From: Fistulifera solaris
Lineage: Eukaryota > Bacillariophyta > Bacillariophyceae > Naviculales > Stauroneidaceae
Length of the DNA stretch: 64,000 nucleotides
Direction: 5' to 3'
Assembly (NCBI GenBank): GCA_030295235.1
Contig: AP026124.1
Span: 1,612,001-1,676,000 of the forward strand
Below the pieces are notes generated by a model. The model did not search any database and was not told where the DNA came from. It saw only the letters and a list, made by a program, of their open reading frames with translations. This document shows, piece after piece, positions 43,778 through 58,914 of this stretch (the stretch's first letter is position 1; each line of letters opens with the position of its first letter). A program made the translations under genes and the position numbers.

Positions 43778-44512
43778 TTAGGCAGAGAACGCTAGGAAAT
43801 CGGAAAAGGCTTTCTCTAACTTGGCAAGCTTGCCCTCCATGATCTCGACACGACGAGGACTTCTCGGGATTCCATCCTTCTGAGTATTGGCCTGTTCCAA
43901 CTCGGTAATATCCTGCATAATCACTCGAATCAGACGATCCGTTCCACGTTGCGTATCCTCTTCGAAGGCAGTGTTCACCGTGTTAAGTGTATCACGAAGA
44001 TCAGCGAAATCCAAGTCCTTGATTATGGTCTTTCGGACATTGACCTGCGAATCAGCTTTGAGTGCGGCTTGCATGTCTTGGACAGCCGATCGGTAACCCT
44101 TTACTTTTTTCAGGGCCGACTGGACCGCATCCGACTTTAGGATATCTGCGTCAATTTCGGCTGTTTTGGGGTCCAATACTCCGGGGCTACTTCCTTTTCC
44201 AAACTCACCATATTGAGCGGCAAACGCGTCCGATGGGCCCCCGAAAGCAATACCTCCTGTGACGAAGATGGCAGCTGCTTGAGACAAGAATTCGGATCGC
44301 GATGGTTGCTTTGCAAAGAGCTGCGACGGAGCTGGTGGTGAATTTGGAATTAAGGAAGAGAGTCTAATATGAGAGTTGTTGACATTCAACATCAACGTTG
44401 CTTGAATTGTTTGTCTTTCCACTTACCGACGTCGTTCACTTTTTTTGTGGGGGGCAAAGGCCGATGCTGGTTCCGAAACAAGGAGGGCAAGGCAAAGAGT
44501 AGTAAACTTCAT
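43778..44512 (-). CDS. PsbQ': PsbQ'-like oxygen-evolving enhancer, plastid lumen
   Basis: Exon 1 is 44512-44427 and exon 2 is 44363-43778 (63-bp intron), for 223 residues. Exon 1 encodes the signal peptide MKFTTLCLALLVSEPASA with FAP next, the full diatom ASAFAP import signature. Exon 2 holds the transit stretch, then a lumen signal (FLSQAAAIFVTGGIAFGG..DAFAA). The mature part begins AQYGEFGKGSSPGVLDPKTA and forms a four-helix bundle pattern with KKVKGYRSAVQDMQAALKAD. In red-lineage algae PsbQ' is an extrinsic photosystem II subunit stabilising the manganese cluster on the lumen side. Upstream sequence to 45202 probably includes its promoter. Confidence 0.85.
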
Positions 44513-45202: not shown

Positions 45203-48200
45203 ATGTCAAAGCCACGGCCTATTCCTCTTACACGTCCCTTGAGGTCGACACCGGATGAAGCGGAGCCATCCTTTTCGTTCGAAGAAGAGTCCTATTTATC
45301 CAACCGAGCCGTCGACTACGAAGACGATTTTCATCGTCGTCTGACTACTTCGGGCACTCGTCGCGAAGAAAGTGGTGGGAGCAGCTTTTGGAGAGCGTCG
45401 AGTGTGAATAATGTTGCCGCTACTCCTTCTTTCAATAGTGTTCATCTTCGGGGGAAAAGCGACATGAATGTGAAAGAACGCAAACCAAACGTGATACCGG
45501 CCCCAGCAACGCCCCAACCGGTTGCGAGAATGTCGAGTGCCGAAAGTCTAACTTCAAGTAGTAATGTACGTAAATCAATTAAGTCGGTGTTGGTTCTGTG
45601 GATGGCGCTCATTTGACTATTCTTTCTTGCCAATTTCTTTCTCTTTGCAGTGGCCGGATCGACGAGATTCAAGTTTGTCCGCAAATTCATCTACCTCTCA
45701 CAAGCACAAGAAAGATGTCACACGACAAAGAGCTGCGGATCGACGTTTGAAATTGGATGCTCAGGGATCAACGCTAGACGCGGGACACATCGTCGACAAT
45801 GACGCCAGCTTCTCGTTTCAACTTCCGAACTTTGCGCAAATGGTCCATGCAACGAGTCTGGATCGGTCATCGAGTGATCAATCGACTGGGTCGCTGCTTT
45901 ATGGAAAATCTCCAAGTGGCTCTCTTATTGGAAAGTCTTCGTCGCTCATATTTCCAACTGGTCTCAATACGAATGGCGACAACGACAACGAAGCAGCAAA
46001 GGCAAAAAGACGCAGAATTAATTTGGCACTCGATCAATGTGAGGCTGTACGATTTCCATTCAAGAAGAAACTGATCTTGACGAATCTAGATCTCTCGGCT
46101 GCTGACATACCGTTGAAGGACTTGTGCGGAACATCGTTGGGCAATACATTGTATAAGTTATCGCTATCGGGAAATAGGCTCGGAACGGTCCCCGCGCGCT
46201 TGGTACAAAATCTTCCTGTTTTGAAGCATCTTGATCTTTTCGCAATGCGAGTTGAGTCAGCTGCCGGAAAAATGGAATCTCCCTAAGCTGTCGCAACTCA
46301 ATTTGAGCCACAACGGTTTCACTGAGTTTCCCGATGAGGTACGTAGTTGATGAAGTCAAACGTTGTCGGTTGTATTTGGACACAATCTCAATAATCCGCA
46401 TTATTTGTAACAGATGATGCTGGCTGGGCTTCCCGAGCTGCAGGAGCTGAATATGTACGCTAACAAAGTTGCGGAAATTATCATACCTGCAAATCCGAAA
46501 TTACTGTCCAAGCTAGAAAAGCTTGACCTTGGATACAACGATCTTGTAAGCATACCACCAGAGCTTGACCAGCTGAAATCATTGAAAGTCCTTCGCGTCA
46601 TGAACAACTTTTTAGCCAAAGTTCCAATGCGAGTTTGTGAAATGGACTTGAAAAGCATTGATGTTTCTAGTAATCCTATTACAGAACCGCCTGCTGAAAC
46701 ATGCGAACGCGGTATCTGCTCAATGAGACGATATTGGCATTGTATCCGCATGGAAGAACAATCAAAGCAAAAGGCCGTGGAAGAGGCATCTAAGAAGTTA
46801 CAAAGACAATCGAAGAAGCGGGAAACCAAGAAGAAGTACGGCGGGCTTGGTTTAATGTTTCAGGGAAAATCGAAAGCAAAGGTTCCGGAGAGCGATTCTT
46901 CTGTGCATTCGCATACTTCGCCGTCCGTTATCAAACGAAAGCAAATAGAATCTTCTGTGTCCTTTCGATTGGAGGACGAGTTTCAGTCTAAGTCTATGTT
47001 GGGGATGGGTAGTGACGAAAACATTGAAGGCGCAGATAACGATACCTCATCTGAGAGGGCCACAATCTGGTCATCTGATGTTGGTAAAGAGGAGCCTGAA
47101 GAACACGATCGCATTACTGTCAACGACACGCTGAAGGTTATCTTTGTTGGTAAGTAATGAGACTGTGCGATGATTCCTTTTTCGCGTTTTCTCTGCTAAT
47201 CATATGGTTACGATTTTAGGCATGGCCATGGCAGGCAAAACATCGATGATAAAGCGCTTGATTGAGGGGACAGATGCCATTATTCCTACACGGGACGAAC
47301 GCACAATTGGGGTCGATATTTATCAGTGGAATCCAAAGGATGATGCTCGTTTTGAGCACATTGATTCTCGCATCGAATTTCAAGATCAAGAGTTATCCCA
47401 AACATGTGGTGATATTGATGTGAAATTTAGTGTTTGGGATTTCGCAGGTATGTAAAACCATCCGAAAGTTGAATACAATCATTACTTACTTAGGCTGCGT
47501 CGCTGACGGACTTCACTTAAACAAACGTTCACAGGTCAGCACGTATACCATGCAACTCACGAGCTTTTCTTCTCATCAAGAGCTCTATACGTTCTTGTGT
47601 GGGATATGGGTGTGGGCAATCCGGCTACACAGAAAAGCCAGAGAGCTGCCAACGACAGTGGTGCCTTTTCATTGTACGACTCTGACGAAGAGGACGACGA
47701 AGACGATCTCAGAGCAGAAGAAGAAGCTCGTGGTGCTGATAGAGCTTTGGAGCACGATATCGACGAAAAGGTTCAATTTTGGATCGACTCTATACAATCA
47801 TCGGCTCCTGGAGCAGCTATTCTTCCTGTGGCTTCATATGCTGATTATTTTGGAAATGAGTTAGAACACGAGGCGAAGCGTCGTTGTAATATCTTAAAAC
47901 AGCGCCTATTAAAGCACGAAGAGAGAAGAATTAAAGGTCTGAAGGAGCGCTACAAAGATTACATCGACCAGAACCGTGCAGATGATCCGGCTGCGATTCG
48001 CTTGCGCAAGCTACTTTGCCCTTTATCAGGCCGAAACTTATTTTTGGTGACAACGATGACAACAGTGTTGTTCGCGTAAGCGGGACGAAATATACTGGAT
48101 TTGATGTGTTGACTGAGAGAATTATCAGCATTGCAACAGGGCGCTACAAAGTCCAAAAGTTTCCTATTTTTCACGGTCATGTCGGTGCCAGAATTCCTCG

Positions 48201-50646
48201 GATGCGCTTGGAAGTTCGAGAAGAAGTACGAAAAATGCGTGAAAAGTTCAAAGTTGTAGAATGGGGCCATTTCGTCAACACCCTCAAGGACCGCGGTTTG
48301 ACGAATATTGAAGACATAAGTGATGCCTTGCACTTTTTGACGAATACGGGTGAGCTCTCTTACTTTGGCTCTGTGATGACAACTAAAGCATTACCGTGCA
48401 GTACTGGGACAAGTCCACAACGCGATGAAGTTGATCGAAGTGATCAGGACGATGACAATTACGATGAGGATGCTTTACTGTCAATGGACGATACGAGTAT
48501 CACCGCTCCGATTACAGAGGACGGTTCTCTGACCACGATAGAAGATTACATGTCAAATGGTCTATCGCAGTTCGTCTTCTTGAATCCTAGATGGCTTGTT
48601 GCTGCTGTCGCTTGCATTCTTCGTCATGATCTTGATCGTGAAATCAAAGAAACACGACGCCAATTGATGTCAAAAGAGGAAGGTGGGTGGTTAAAGAACC
48701 CAAACTTCTATGAAGCACATCTGAATTGCCCCGTCATTACCGATGAGGACGCTTGTATGTTGTGGAAGGCGAAGCGAATAACCAAATTAGCTGCAAAGAA
48801 AGCAGAAGAATATTCCCATGACATGACAGTCACCCCATTTGAATTTCTCCAGCTTCTTCTGATCCGTTTCGGTGTATTTGTGCCCATCGACTTGACGATT
48901 GACAAGGCTTTGTTGGGCGGCAAGGAGTACTCTAGATGCTTTGATACACTATGTTCAGTTGATCGTGTCCTCGATACGACCCCTTTGGAAATTACAACGA
49001 CGACAGACCATGGCGATAGCCCAAAATCAAAATTCTTCTTCCTGCCGAGTCTACTCGGACCGTGCGAACCAGCAGATGCATGGACGTACAAGACAACCGA
49101 CTCGTGGAAGACCACTTTATGTCATTCTGTTCTTTTCCCCGATGGAATCCCTCCTGGTCTCATGGAACGACTTACTGCTAATGTTCTCAGCTCTATTTAT
49201 GCCGCCACAAGAAATACTGATTCAAGCTCAAAGGCAACGCTGACACAGCAAGGCGTGGCAACGTGCGAAGGACAAATGTCCGTGAAAGAGATTTTGTGCT
49301 GGCGCACGGCTTTCTACATTAAGCTCGGAACACTTATCACAACAAGTGACGGAGCGAAAACAGAAAGTGTTGTAGAAATCTTTACTCATCTTGCTGACAG
49401 GGATTCCCATCTCTGCGTCGGAGCGGATGACATGGCCGTCGGAATGCGTCGTCTAATAACAAGTGGAAGAGGTCAAGTTGGAGACGGTGGTCGAAAGATC
49501 TGGAAGGGAGGTTATTTGCTTGTTTGTAAATGCATTCAGCGGGTCATGGAAGCATATGGCGGTCTAGAATTTGAAAAACAAGGATTCTGTCCAGAATGTT
49601 TGGCGAAAAAGTCTATTGGAGAGGCTAGCTCGTGGGATCATACTGCAATAAGAGCTGCGGTACGTGATTCCGAGTCGACGCTTCGATGTCATCATGGCCA
49701 TCGCGTCGACACACGACTTGTTGCAGGACCTGTTGATTCTTTTCTAAAAACGGATCAGGACCTAATGGTTAAGACGGTCGATGCCGTCGATACAGTTGTC
49801 CCAGTGAAAGAAATATTAACAGCTGTTGTGGTAGTAGGTCTATGGGATGGGAAAACTCGAAAGGTTGTCAGAGTTGGGTCAGGATTCATTGTTGACAAAA
49901 AGCGAGGTTTGATTGTTACCGCTAGTCACACGCTAATAAACATTTGGGGTGATAAGAATTACCCATACGGCGAAAACTATTACGGTCTACCACAAGGTAA
50001 AGTCGTGATCGGTGTCATCCCAGACAAGGAGTCAGAGGGATGGAACGGAAAGGATCTCGCAGTTTTTCGCTACTTTGCCAAAATTGTGGCGAAAGACCCT
50101 CGTTTGGATCACGGTGAATGTCATTTGGATGCTTGTGTTCTTCGCATAACCACCCGCTTGGAGAATGATGTCGACGGCAATGGAGATGGATGTGGTGACC
50201 AACCCGAGATTCTTCTTTTGAATAACGACAAGGCGATGAAGAAGGAGCAGCTTCGATCTCTCAAAGTTACCGAAAAGTGCGAGATAGAAGAGCAAGTTCG
50301 AATCGTGGGGTATAATCAAGGAGGCAATGGTCTTTTGGGACCAGGAGAGAGTTTGAATAGGTGTGTCGACTTTGCTCGGGGTTATATATGCATGAAGTTT
50401 ACACACGACGATCTAGAGTCGGGAACAGTTAGTAATAGCGGGCGTCGAGACCGTTTCAAACCTAAAGAAGAAGTTGTAGTGATTTGCCCAACGATTGGAG
50501 GGCACAGTGGAGGCCCATGTGTGAACCAACAAGGTGAGGTTATTGGAATTCTAAGTAGAGCAGACCCAGCTGAAAGCCAGCGATGCTACATTTCTCCAGC
50601 GCATGAATGGAAGCACCTGGTAAAAGAAGCCAAAAACAAGATGTAA
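45203..50646 (+). CDS. LRR-Roc-COR (Roco) GTPase fused to a trypsin-like protease
   Basis: Five exons: 45203-45565, 45651-46338, 46414-47149, 47220-47447 and 47535-50646, about 1708 residues. After a disordered Ser-rich N-terminus come leucine-rich repeats (residues about 260-435; LEKLDLGYNDLVSIPPELDQ). A Roc GTPase follows with P-loop GMAMAGKTS (about 600), RTIGVDI, and VWDFAGQ split by an intron. The G4 site is degenerate (VASYAD). A COR domain follows (IEDISDALHFLTNTGELSYF, FVFLNPRWLVAAV), then a Cys/His segment (CPECLAKK..CHHGHRVDTRLVAG). The last 250 residues are a chymotrypsin-fold protease with His (LIVTASHTL, about 1469), Asp (LDACVLRI) and Ser (TIGGHSGGPCV, about 1661). Frame breaks at T runs 46237-46240 (one extra) and 48022-48024 (one short). 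Correction gives exactly 1709 codons. Confidence 0.8.
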
Positions 50647-56248: not shown

Positions 56249-58914
56249 ATGAATAATACTTGCCGACGGCGGATACTTGAATTACTATGGTGCCTCATCT
56301 TGCTGGTGTCGGCCAACGGTGAAACTCATCGACAACCCAATCGGCATCTGATAAAGTCAAGTGCTAAATCAAAACGTCAAGAATTAAACATTTTTGCGAG
56401 ACATAAAGGAAGCGAAAAGAGCAAGGGGAAAGCTTCTTCCAGTAAAAGTACCAAAGGGAAAAGAAATGGATCTTCTAAGAAAAGCGACAGTGGAAAGGGA
56501 AAAGGAAGCTCCAGTAAAAGTCATGAATCAAAAGGCAAGGGAAAGGGATCAAAGCGGACGGCCACTCCAACAATCCACGATATTGAATTCCCCACACTAT
56601 CTCCAGTCGTTCATTCTTCCTCGTCGAAAAAGTCAAAAGGAAAGAAGTATAGCAAAAAGGGAGCGAGGACCGTACCGTCCGTCCCACACCAAAATTAGAT
56701 GACATGCCAACTGTGGCACCTAGCAAATCACCAACTAGGGTATCAACCAGTAGTCCCACACGCTCTCCCGTTACTGGCTCGATTCTTTTGCCCACCAACT
56801 CGCCATCAATGAATACAGCCGAATCTCCAACGTCTACACCAGCTTTCACTCCTACTTTACCACCTGACGCCGGCCGCACCTCGGCACCGACTCAATCAGC
56901 CAACAACCCAACAGCGGCACCAACAGAATCGAATGGTAACCCCACAGTGGCACCAACAGAAGCAAATAATACCCCAACATTGGCACCAACAGAATCGATC
57001 GACACCCCAACAGTGGCACCAACTTCTTCAGCAACTGAAACGTTAGCTCCAACTGCACCATTGGATGAAACAGCAACTCCAACATTATCAGCGTTTCCAA
57101 CTGGTACAACTTTTCCAACCGGAACTGCTTTTCCGGTGACGTCAACACCAGGTCCATCGTCTTCGTCGACCTCAGAAACGAGTGAACCACTGGTCACGAC
57201 ACCTCCAACTAGTGCATCTACTTCCGAGCCTGTCGTAACTACAGCTCCAACTAGTGCAACTCCTTCCGAGCCTGCCGTCACCACAGCTCCTACTAATGAA
57301 GGTACCTCCGAGCCTGCAACTACAACGGCTCCAACTAGTGAAACTACTTCCGAGCCTGCAATAACAACGGCTCCAACCAGTGCAACAACGTCCGAGCCTG
57401 CCGTCACGACTGCTCCTACTAGCAGTGCTGCTACTGATGAGCCTGTCGAAACAACAGCGCCTACAAGTGCCACTACACCTGATCCTTCCGTCACGACTGC
57501 TCCTACTAGCAGTGCTGCTACTGATGAGCCTGTCGAAACAACAGCGCCTACAAGTGCCACTACACCTGATCCTTCCGTCACGACTGCACCTACTAGCAGT
57601 GCTGCTACTGACGAGCCCGCCGCTACACCAGTCCCTACTAGTGCCAGAACGCCGGATCCTTCCGTCACGACAGCTCCCAGTACTTCAGATACAGATGATC
57701 CTTCTGAAACGACAGTTCCGAGCAGTGCGTCATTAGATCCGTCAGTCACGACAGCACCTAGCAGTTTAGCTACTGGTACAAGTGACCCTGCCGTCACGAC
57801 AGTTCCTACAAGTGCCAATTCTCCGGATCCGGCCGTCACGACTGCTCCGTCTAGTGCGACTACATCTGATCCTGCCGTCACGACAGCTCCGTCTAGTGCG
57901 ACTTCGTCAGAGCCTGCCGTTACAACAGTTCCTACTAGTGCAACTACATCTGAGCCTGCAACTACAACAGCACCCAGTAGTTCAGATACGAGTGAACCTG
58001 TCGTCACAACGGCTCCCAGCAGTCTTGGTACAGACGAACCGGCCGACACAATAGCGCCAACCCCCCAAACCGGATCAGCTGCGCCAGCACCAACTCCTTC
58101 GCTGGCTCCGACACCAGAAAATTCAGTCAACTCGTCTGGTACCGAATTAACACCATTTGCAATAGTATACAATACGAGCAATACGGCACAACCAACCGAG
58201 GAGGACTTCGCAGAAGTAGAAAATCTCACCCTGGCGTACATCGATGAATTCCTGACCCAAGCATACGGTTATGTCGATGGTGTCGAATACTCCGACATTG
58301 AGGGAAGTGCGACAGGTCAAGCGTTTCAGCCAAATCGTATAGGGTTTGAAACCCGCATTATCTTCGATGATACGTCGGAAACCATTCCATCACAAGAGGA
58401 CCTGGACGCGATTCTTGTTGTTGCATTTGAACCACCGCAAGTAGATATGTTCATCTCGATGTTGAACAATGAGCTAAGTCCCACAAATCCCATGTCAACA
58501 ACTACTTCGGTCGTCTACACTGCAGTTCGACCAGAGACTGACGACTCACAAGAAGGCCAACGAATGGTTATCGTCGTGATGTTCACCGGTGTATGCGTCC
58601 TTTCCATAGTTTTGGGAGTGTATGTCACGGAGAAGCAACGCAATAATCACATTCAAAACAAAAAGAAAAGGAAACATCCCCTTGTCGACGAAATTACAGT
58701 GCTCCTGGACGAAAGTTCGCGCGGCTCGTCTTCACGCATTTCTCGTTCACGTGTTGCCTCGCCATACCTTGAAGATGATCGGTTAGTCGAGATCGAATTC
58801 TCCGGGGATGTAGAAGCATTAGACCCTCTTTGTTCAGATCCTTTCTCACTCTCGTGGCTTGACTCTTATTCCCTGTCAACGGCGAAATCAAGAAGACAAG
58901 CCACAGACCAATGA
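56249..58914 (+). CDS. Silaffin-like membrane protein 2 with long Thr/Ser/Pro repeat
   Basis: Intronless, 888 residues after one correction. Signal peptide (RRRILELLWCLILLVSANG); a silaffin-like KSKGK region (SSSKSTKGKRNGSSKKS); then about 450 residues of Thr/Ser/Pro repeats with the core TTAPTSA..(S/D)EP. A folded luminal domain follows (TPFAIVYNTSNTAQPTEEDF, LTLAYIDEFLTQAYGYVDG), homologous to that of 52677-54214. A membrane span (VVMFTGVCVLSIVLGVYV) and a basic-then-acidic tail end the protein. The repeat is likely O-glycosylated and extended. The frame breaks at an A5 run, 56654-56658 (six fit), linking YSKKG to SEDRTVRPTP; without it the first part stops at 56698. It is probably a cell wall or silica-vesicle protein. 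Confidence 0.65.
57403..57576 (+). repeat. Perfect 87-bp tandem duplication
   Basis: 57403-57489 is repeated exactly at 57490-57576 (unit begins GTCACGACTGCTCC, 29 codons), followed by a further diverging copy from 57577. It lies in the Thr/Ser/Pro repeat of the silaffin-like gene 2. It indicates recent expansion and likely length variation between strains. Confidence 0.85.

What the first reader, a model, noticed from the sequence alone, without database searches (positions are those of the whole stretch)
45203..50646. Roco GTPase carrying a C-terminal trypsin-like protease with an intact triad
One gene joins leucine-rich repeats, a Roc GTPase, a COR domain, a Cys/His segment and a chymotrypsin-fold domain with His, Asp and Ser in canonical contexts (TASH, LDACVLRI, GGHSGGP). 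Known Roco proteins usually end in kinases, WD40 or death domains, while proteases as effectors are known from bacterial conflict and STAND-type systems. A sensor (LRR), a GTPase switch and a protease effector in one chain suggest a signal-triggered protease, possibly in immunity-like or cell-death responses. That role is inference. The G4 motif of Roc is degenerate, so nucleotide handling may be unusual.
Basis: partly seen in the sequence, partly recalled or inferred. Interest (0 to 1): 0.78.

Follow-up and report, generated by a model that had tools for sequence, protein, structure and literature searches.

The report
Diatom Roco GTPase with protease tail
A diatom gene joins a leucine-rich sensor, a Roco GTPase switch and a trypsin-like protease in one protein; the combination is real and strongly conserved, but the same layout has already been reported in brown algae and some of their relatives.

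Summary
At 45203-50646 lies a five-exon gene with LRRs, Roc, COR, a Cys/His segment and a C-terminal trypsin-like domain. COR-A and Trypsin_2 share one 886-aa frame, so the protease is not a separate gene. His, Asp and Ser align with five other Trypsin_2 proteins of this genome. Against a homoeolog on contig C1, dN/dS is 0.072 overall, 0.045 in the protease. A paralog about 53 kb away keeps COR, Cys/His and triad motifs but shows no LRR and degenerate GTPase motifs. These two genes in two subgenomes are the 4 of 4 COR-A loci found.

Corrections: as assembled this copy has two private single-base frame breaks, probably assembly error. Both structure models came out unusable, so triad geometry is untested. 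The layout is in print: ROCOs with a C-terminal peptidase in brown algae and other SAR species (PMC11378527). The LRR is the best-kept part, which speaks against a fast-evolving immune receptor. Best reading: a GTPase-gated, cytosolic, HtrA-like protease answering a conserved signal. New member of a known, barely described kind.

The parts
45203..45565 (+). exon 1: start codon and N-terminus without Pfam match, no evident signal peptide (by eye)
45651..46338 (+). exon 2: N-terminal linker and first LRRs; holds a single-base frame break near 46237 relative to the homoeolog
   Evidence: (LRR_8 only 0.0011 in the window copy); the homoeologous piece in L022 gives LRR_8 2.9e-10
46414..47149 (+). 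exon 3: further LRRs (LRR_4 at 46510-46620), variable linker, first base of the Roc G1 motif codon
   Evidence: LRR_4 3.5e-10; linker dN/dS 0.258
47220..47447 (+). exon 4: Roc from G1 (GMAMAGKT, first codon split by the intron) to G3 (WDFAG)
   Evidence: (Roc 1.8e-4)
47535..50646 (+). exon 5: rest of Roc, COR-A, COR-B (by eye), Cys/His segment, protease; a single-base frame break near 48018, then open to the stop
48208..48372 (+). COR-A Pfam match (best stretch)
   Evidence: E 1.4e-8, 35.2 bits against cut-off 35.3; 40.7 bits with neighbours in frame
49588..49701 (+). Cys/His segment CPEC...RCHHGH; the two Cys of CPEC, the later Cys and the last His are invariant in 4 of 4 copies; possible zinc site (inference)
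49876..50550 (+). Trypsin_2 (trypsin-like) domain
   Evidence: 2.2e-14, profile 1-144; HTRA1 1.6e-5 as best solved relative
49927..49929 (+). presumed catalytic His codon (TASH)
50128..50130 (+). presumed catalytic Asp codon (LDACVLRI)
50506..50508 (+). presumed catalytic Ser codon (GGHSGGP)

Best explanation
A Roco protein whose output is a trypsin-like (HtrA-type, PDZ-less) serine protease. Shown: the domains lie in one gene, the triad motifs and Cys/His residues are conserved in homoeolog and paralog, and the whole chain is under purifying selection. Inferred: the protein is cytosolic; the LRR binds a conserved partner or stress signal; the Roc-COR module dimerises and switches with nucleotide as in other Rocos; the COR-B/Cys-His hinge passes the change to the protease, which then cuts a limited set of substrates, possibly including the chain itself. 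The nearby LRR-less paralog, with a degenerate Roc and kept triad motifs, is probably a partner or a constitutive form.
For: COR-A and Trypsin_2 in a single 886-aa frame; triad columns match five other Trypsin_2 proteins of the genome, and HTRA1 in the His and Ser stretches; dN/dS 0.072 over 1702 codons, 0.045 in the protease, 0.042 in the Cys/His segment; paralog Cys/His plus protease dN/dS 0.048; the 4 of 4 COR-A loci found in the genome are these two genes in two subgenomes, each with a Trypsin_2 match; G1 and G3 of Roc canonical in this gene.
Against: No expression, biochemical or structural evidence. Both AlphaFold2 runs gave mean pLDDT of about 31, so neither triad geometry nor coupling is shown. 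The copy as assembled is frame-broken twice. [quoted passage not shown] The paralog keeps the protease without canonical GTPase motifs, so nucleotide control may not be essential.
Confidence: 0.55

Rival explanations
1. Self-cutting switch: the protease mainly cleaves its own chain (the acidic or variable linkers are candidate sites), releasing a signalling fragment, rather than cutting other proteins.
For: Protease and a fast-changing linker (dN/dS 0.258) are in one chain; autoproteolytic LRR signalling proteins exist (PIDD1, NLRP1; recalled).
Against: No cleavage site was identified; the paralog keeps the protease although its N-terminal half differs.
Confidence: 0.17
2. Non-catalytic scaffold: the trypsin fold serves as a peptide-binding or dimerising module and the triad is not used.
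For: [quoted passage not shown]
Against: Those were called inactive, whereas His, Asp, Ser and GxSGG are kept in this gene, its homoeolog and the C2 paralog, and in the C1 paralog across two frames.
Confidence: 0.13
3. Fast-evolving immune receptor with a protease effector.
For: Brown algal ROCOs are candidate immune receptors (PMC11378527); trypsins are effectors in bacterial conflict systems (PMC7159879).
Against: LRR is the most conserved part here: 2 nonsynonymous against 27 synonymous differences over 202 codons; only two genes found, no expansion.
Confidence: 0.1
4. Decaying pseudogene: the frame breaks are real.
For: Two frame breaks in this copy and two in the homoeolog; the paralog copies are also broken. 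The two best HSP70 matches (C19, C20) are not broken, so intact genes do exist in this assembly.
Against: No break is shared by the two homoeologs; dN/dS is low in all seven parts and no internal stop occurs in 1702 compared codons; some HSP70 loci (C1, C2, C9) consist of overlapping pieces in different frames, as do some silicon transporter loci.
Confidence: 0.05

Closest known systems
Brown algal ROCO 'group 3' and related SAR ROCOs with C-terminal peptidase (Teng et al. 2024, PMC11378527; section 10 read whole)
   Same: N-terminal LRR, ROC, C-terminal peptidase (IPR009003); stramenopile/SAR; few copies per species
   Different: The section does not say whether those triads are intact, nor name a diatom with a peptidase ROCO; their sequences could not be compared here; the present genome also has an LRR-less, Roc-degenerate paralog
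LRR-Roc-COR proteins of bacteria and archaea (CtRoco type)
   Same: LRR then Roc then COR
   Different: [quoted passage not shown] no protease mentioned
HtrA/Deg proteases (HTRA1 best solved relative)
   Same: His and Ser stretches align; aligned with two Deg-like proteins of the genome
   Different: No PDZ match, no signal peptide seen; long insertions between the His, Asp and Ser motifs; weak similarity (best E 1.6e-5)
Trypsin effectors of bacterial NTP-dependent conflict systems (PMC7159879, passages)
   Same: NTPase switch coupled to a trypsin-like peptidase
   Different: The passages seen describe MoxR-vWA, iSTAND and double-GTPase systems; 'Roco' and 'Roc-COR' occur once each, in the reference list

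Membership tests
Roco (Roc-COR) family | Roc GTPase domain with G1 and G3 motifs | tested here: met
   Roc E 1.8e-4 for exon 4 alone (22.2 bits, below cut-off 27; the domain is split over exons); GMAMAGKT and WDFAGQ
Roco (Roc-COR) family | COR domain directly after Roc | tested here: met
   COR-A 1.4e-8 (35.2 bits, cut-off 35.3); 40.7 bits with neighbours in frame, over cut-off
Roco (Roc-COR) family | nucleotide binding and dimerisation | not testable with these tools
   needs protein
Peptidase-bearing SAR ROCO (brown algal group 3 type) | LRR-ROC with C-terminal PA-clan peptidase | tested here: met
   definition from PMC11378527 section 10; that IPR009003 means the S1/PA-clan superfamily is recalled
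Peptidase-bearing SAR ROCO (brown algal group 3 type) | phylogenetic nesting of the Roc domain in that clade | not tested
   no other stramenopile sequences were available in the tools used
Trypsin-like serine peptidase (PA clan) | His-Asp-Ser triad in order, in family context | tested here: met
   alignment; Trypsin_2 profile 1-144
Trypsin-like serine peptidase (PA clan) | triad geometry in a folded model | tested here: inconclusive
   mean pLDDT 31.1 and 30.8
HtrA/Deg family | PDZ domain after the protease | tested here: not met
   coding sequence ends 93 nt after the Trypsin_2 match; no PDZ match
STAND/NLR-type receptor | STAND NTPase (NB-ARC/NACHT) | tested here: not met
   no such Pfam match at E up to 1 in the six pieces scanned

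The most novel reading that the evidence does not exclude
The two neighbouring genes form one unit: an LRR-GTPase-protease sensor and an LRR-less, GTPase-dead Roco protease that pairs with it through COR, so that a nucleotide switch assembles or releases an active trypsin-like dimer in the cytosol of a unicellular alga. It would be a eukaryotic signal-gated protease built on the LRRK2-type switch.
Probability: 0.15. Interest if true: 0.65.

Novelty: new member of a known kind. Interest (0 to 1): 0.42.

Why it matters
Roco switches are studied mostly through kinase-bearing members such as LRRK2 (general knowledge). A Roco that ends in a protease offers a different readout for the open question of how Roc-COR controls its output domain, in an alga. 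The gene pair also shows that the protease and Cys/His segment are kept where LRR and GTPase motifs are lost, which points to the protease as the essential output (inference).

Tried and rejected
Separate protease gene: rejected, one frame holds COR and protease. Prokaryotic or viral relatives: the genome-contig scan gave 1 relative among 262 pattern matches, a stretch matching 37 query residues in a Pelagibacteraceae contig; viral contigs gave 0 of 82; the plasmid collection gave no match. The first two scans rest on two short peptide patterns each, so distant Roc-COR-trypsin fusions in bacteria are not excluded. COR part against solved structures: 2 chance-level hits, no Roco. Structure models: both ran but were unusable, so no fold search was made. 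A search for bacterial COR-A proteins could not be started. Species: silicon transporters point to a diatom; paired contigs and dS 0.251 point to two subgenomes. Fistulifera solaris, an allopolyploid diatom by a title in a reference list, is suspected but untested; searches did not settle it. Literature searches; listings were capped (30 of 6,408; 20 of 141; 15 of 584). The decisive paper is PMC11378527 (section 10 whole; passages). PMC6337361, PMC6320773 and PMC4104024 were only word-searched: protease, peptidase and trypsin occur 0 times in each. PMC7159879, PMC8147415 and PMC11353593: passages only.

Full report
What is there. The gene starts at an ATG at 45203 and stops at 50646, with four short GT-AG introns. 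Pfam finds LRRs in exons 2 (weakly, 0.0011) and 3 (3.5e-10), Roc in exon 4 (1.8e-4), and COR-A (1.4e-8) and Trypsin_2 (2.2e-14, profile 1-144) in exon 5. The last two share one open frame of 886 codons, 47986-50646. This excludes the separate-gene reading at the level of the genome sequence; no transcript data were available.

Frame breaks. Compared with the homoeologous copy on contig C1 (L022; 91% DNA identity over 6376 alignment columns) the exons hold four single-base length differences: two private to the window copy (near 46237 and 48018) and two private to C1 (near window positions 48579 and 49284); one 6-base in-frame difference lies in exon 1. Neither copy as assembled reads through, but no break is shared. 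As a control, HSP70: among its 52 matches the loci on C1 (1013459-1015342), C2 (951745-953785) and C9 (322255-324147) include overlapping pieces in different frames, while the two best (C19, C20) are whole. Some silicon transporter loci, e.g. on C23 and C24, are split or have stops inside. The kinase gene beside the paralog is broken in both copies, at different places, by eye. The likeliest cause is indel error in a long-read assembly, an error kind described for nanopore data (PMC8147415 passage); how this assembly was made is not known to me.

Selection. Exons are 92.2, 93.9, 92.7, 96.9 and 94.1% identical, introns 78.0, 71.2, 87.1 and 72.1%. Over 1702 of 1709 codons (6 with gaps and the stop left out) there are 244 synonymous and 71 nonsynonymous differences, dN/dS 0.072. 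By part: N-terminus 0.082, LRR 0.019 (2 nonsynonymous), linker 0.258, Roc 0.103, COR 0.055, Cys/His 0.042, protease 0.045. Part borders were set by hand.

Paralog. A second gene lies on C2 about 53 kb before this gene, on the other strand, with a counterpart on C1. Its C2 copy matches Roc weakly (7e-4), COR-A (1.1e-5) and Trypsin_2 (2.8e-15), with no LRR match at E up to 0.1 in its 1115-aa frame. By eye its G1 is AAPGVDKS and its G3 WDVQSP, so both P-loop glycines and the DxxG glycine are gone, while the Cys/His pattern and the triad motifs stay. In the C1 copy the Ser motif lies in a second frame after a break. Between the two copies dN/dS is 0.232 in the N-terminus, 0.11 in the Roc-like part, 0.112 and 0.017 in two COR parts and 0.048 in Cys/His plus protease; dS varies from 0.26 to 0.89 between parts, so these values are rough. 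The paralog has a GT-AG intron directly before the Cys/His segment, absent from the window gene.

COR-A matches in the 51.7-Mb genome: 4, which are these two genes in two subgenomes (E up to 0.01; a six-frame search, so a COR split by introns could be missed). All four loci also give Trypsin_2 matches (37 matches in the genome in all). So the Rocos found here are all Roco proteases.

Protease. In an alignment with five other Trypsin_2 proteins of the genome (5 chosen by me out of the 37 matches), two Deg-like and three S1-like by eye, His, Asp and Ser fall in the same columns in all. HTRA1 is the best solved relative (1.6e-5, profile of four copies); in the alignments shown only the His and Ser stretches match, not the Asp. 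AlphaFold2 with 4 and 10 rows gave mean pLDDT 31.1 and 30.8, so geometry remains open.

Mechanism. Best reading: LRR as sensor for a conserved partner, Roc-COR as switch and dimer module, Cys/His hinge, protease as output. All of this is inference from domain content. The strong LRR conservation and the low copy number argue against an arms-race receptor; brown algal ROCO LRR exons, by contrast, are reported to shuffle and diversify (PMC11378527 abstract). Immune use is not excluded.

Known or new. Teng et al. 2024 (PMC11378527, section 10 read whole) report that 3 of 111 brown algal ROCO genes form group 3 with a C-terminal peptidase domain (IPR009003), nested in a clade with ROCOs of other SAR organisms, some also with C-terminal peptidases. 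[quoted passage not shown] The section does not name which SAR species carry the peptidase, and its last paragraph calls LRR-ROC-COR the only domain structure of brown algal ROCOs, which sits oddly with group 3. The present gene fits the group 3 description. None of the papers in the (partly capped) listings that I opened treats the function or triad of such proteins. Hence: new member of a known, barely described kind. What I did not see reported is the dN/dS profile, the finding that all Rocos detected in one genome are Roco proteases, and the GTPase-degenerate LRR-less paralog.

Organism. 23 matches to silicon transporters, and an upstream neighbour with a weak PsbQ match and an ASAFAP motif read by eye (a plastid-targeting motif, per an abstract), point to a diatom. 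Paired contigs with dS 0.251 suggest an allodiploid; the species was not tested.

Noticed in passing
L024 455-5454 (C2:1598954-1603953, minus) and L023 (C1 counterpart): LRR-less Roco protease paralog with degenerate G1 and G3 but conserved Cys/His segment and triad motifs; about 600 N-terminal residues without Pfam match.
   Followed up: partly
G000 C11:747342-755143 and C12:708934-709362; C1:144685-165057 and C2:128508-146574: Clusters of Trypsin_2 genes; about five on C11 against one match on C12, while the C1 and C2 clusters are of similar size.
   Followed up: no
window 43781-44480, minus: Divergent neighbour with a weak PsbQ match (4.1e-4, below cut-off); by eye an ASAFAP plastid-targeting motif lies near 44460 on the minus strand.
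   Followed up: partly
window 56653-58914, plus: Ser/Thr/Pro-rich repeat frame (TTAPTS-type repeats) with a hydrophobic stretch near the C-terminus, beside a Lys/Ser/Gly-rich frame; resembles a cell-surface protein (by eye).
   Followed up: no
assembly, e.g. HSP70 loci at C2:951745-953785 and C1:1013459-1015342: Overlapping pieces in different frames in housekeeping genes; gene models from this assembly should be read with care.
   Followed up: partly
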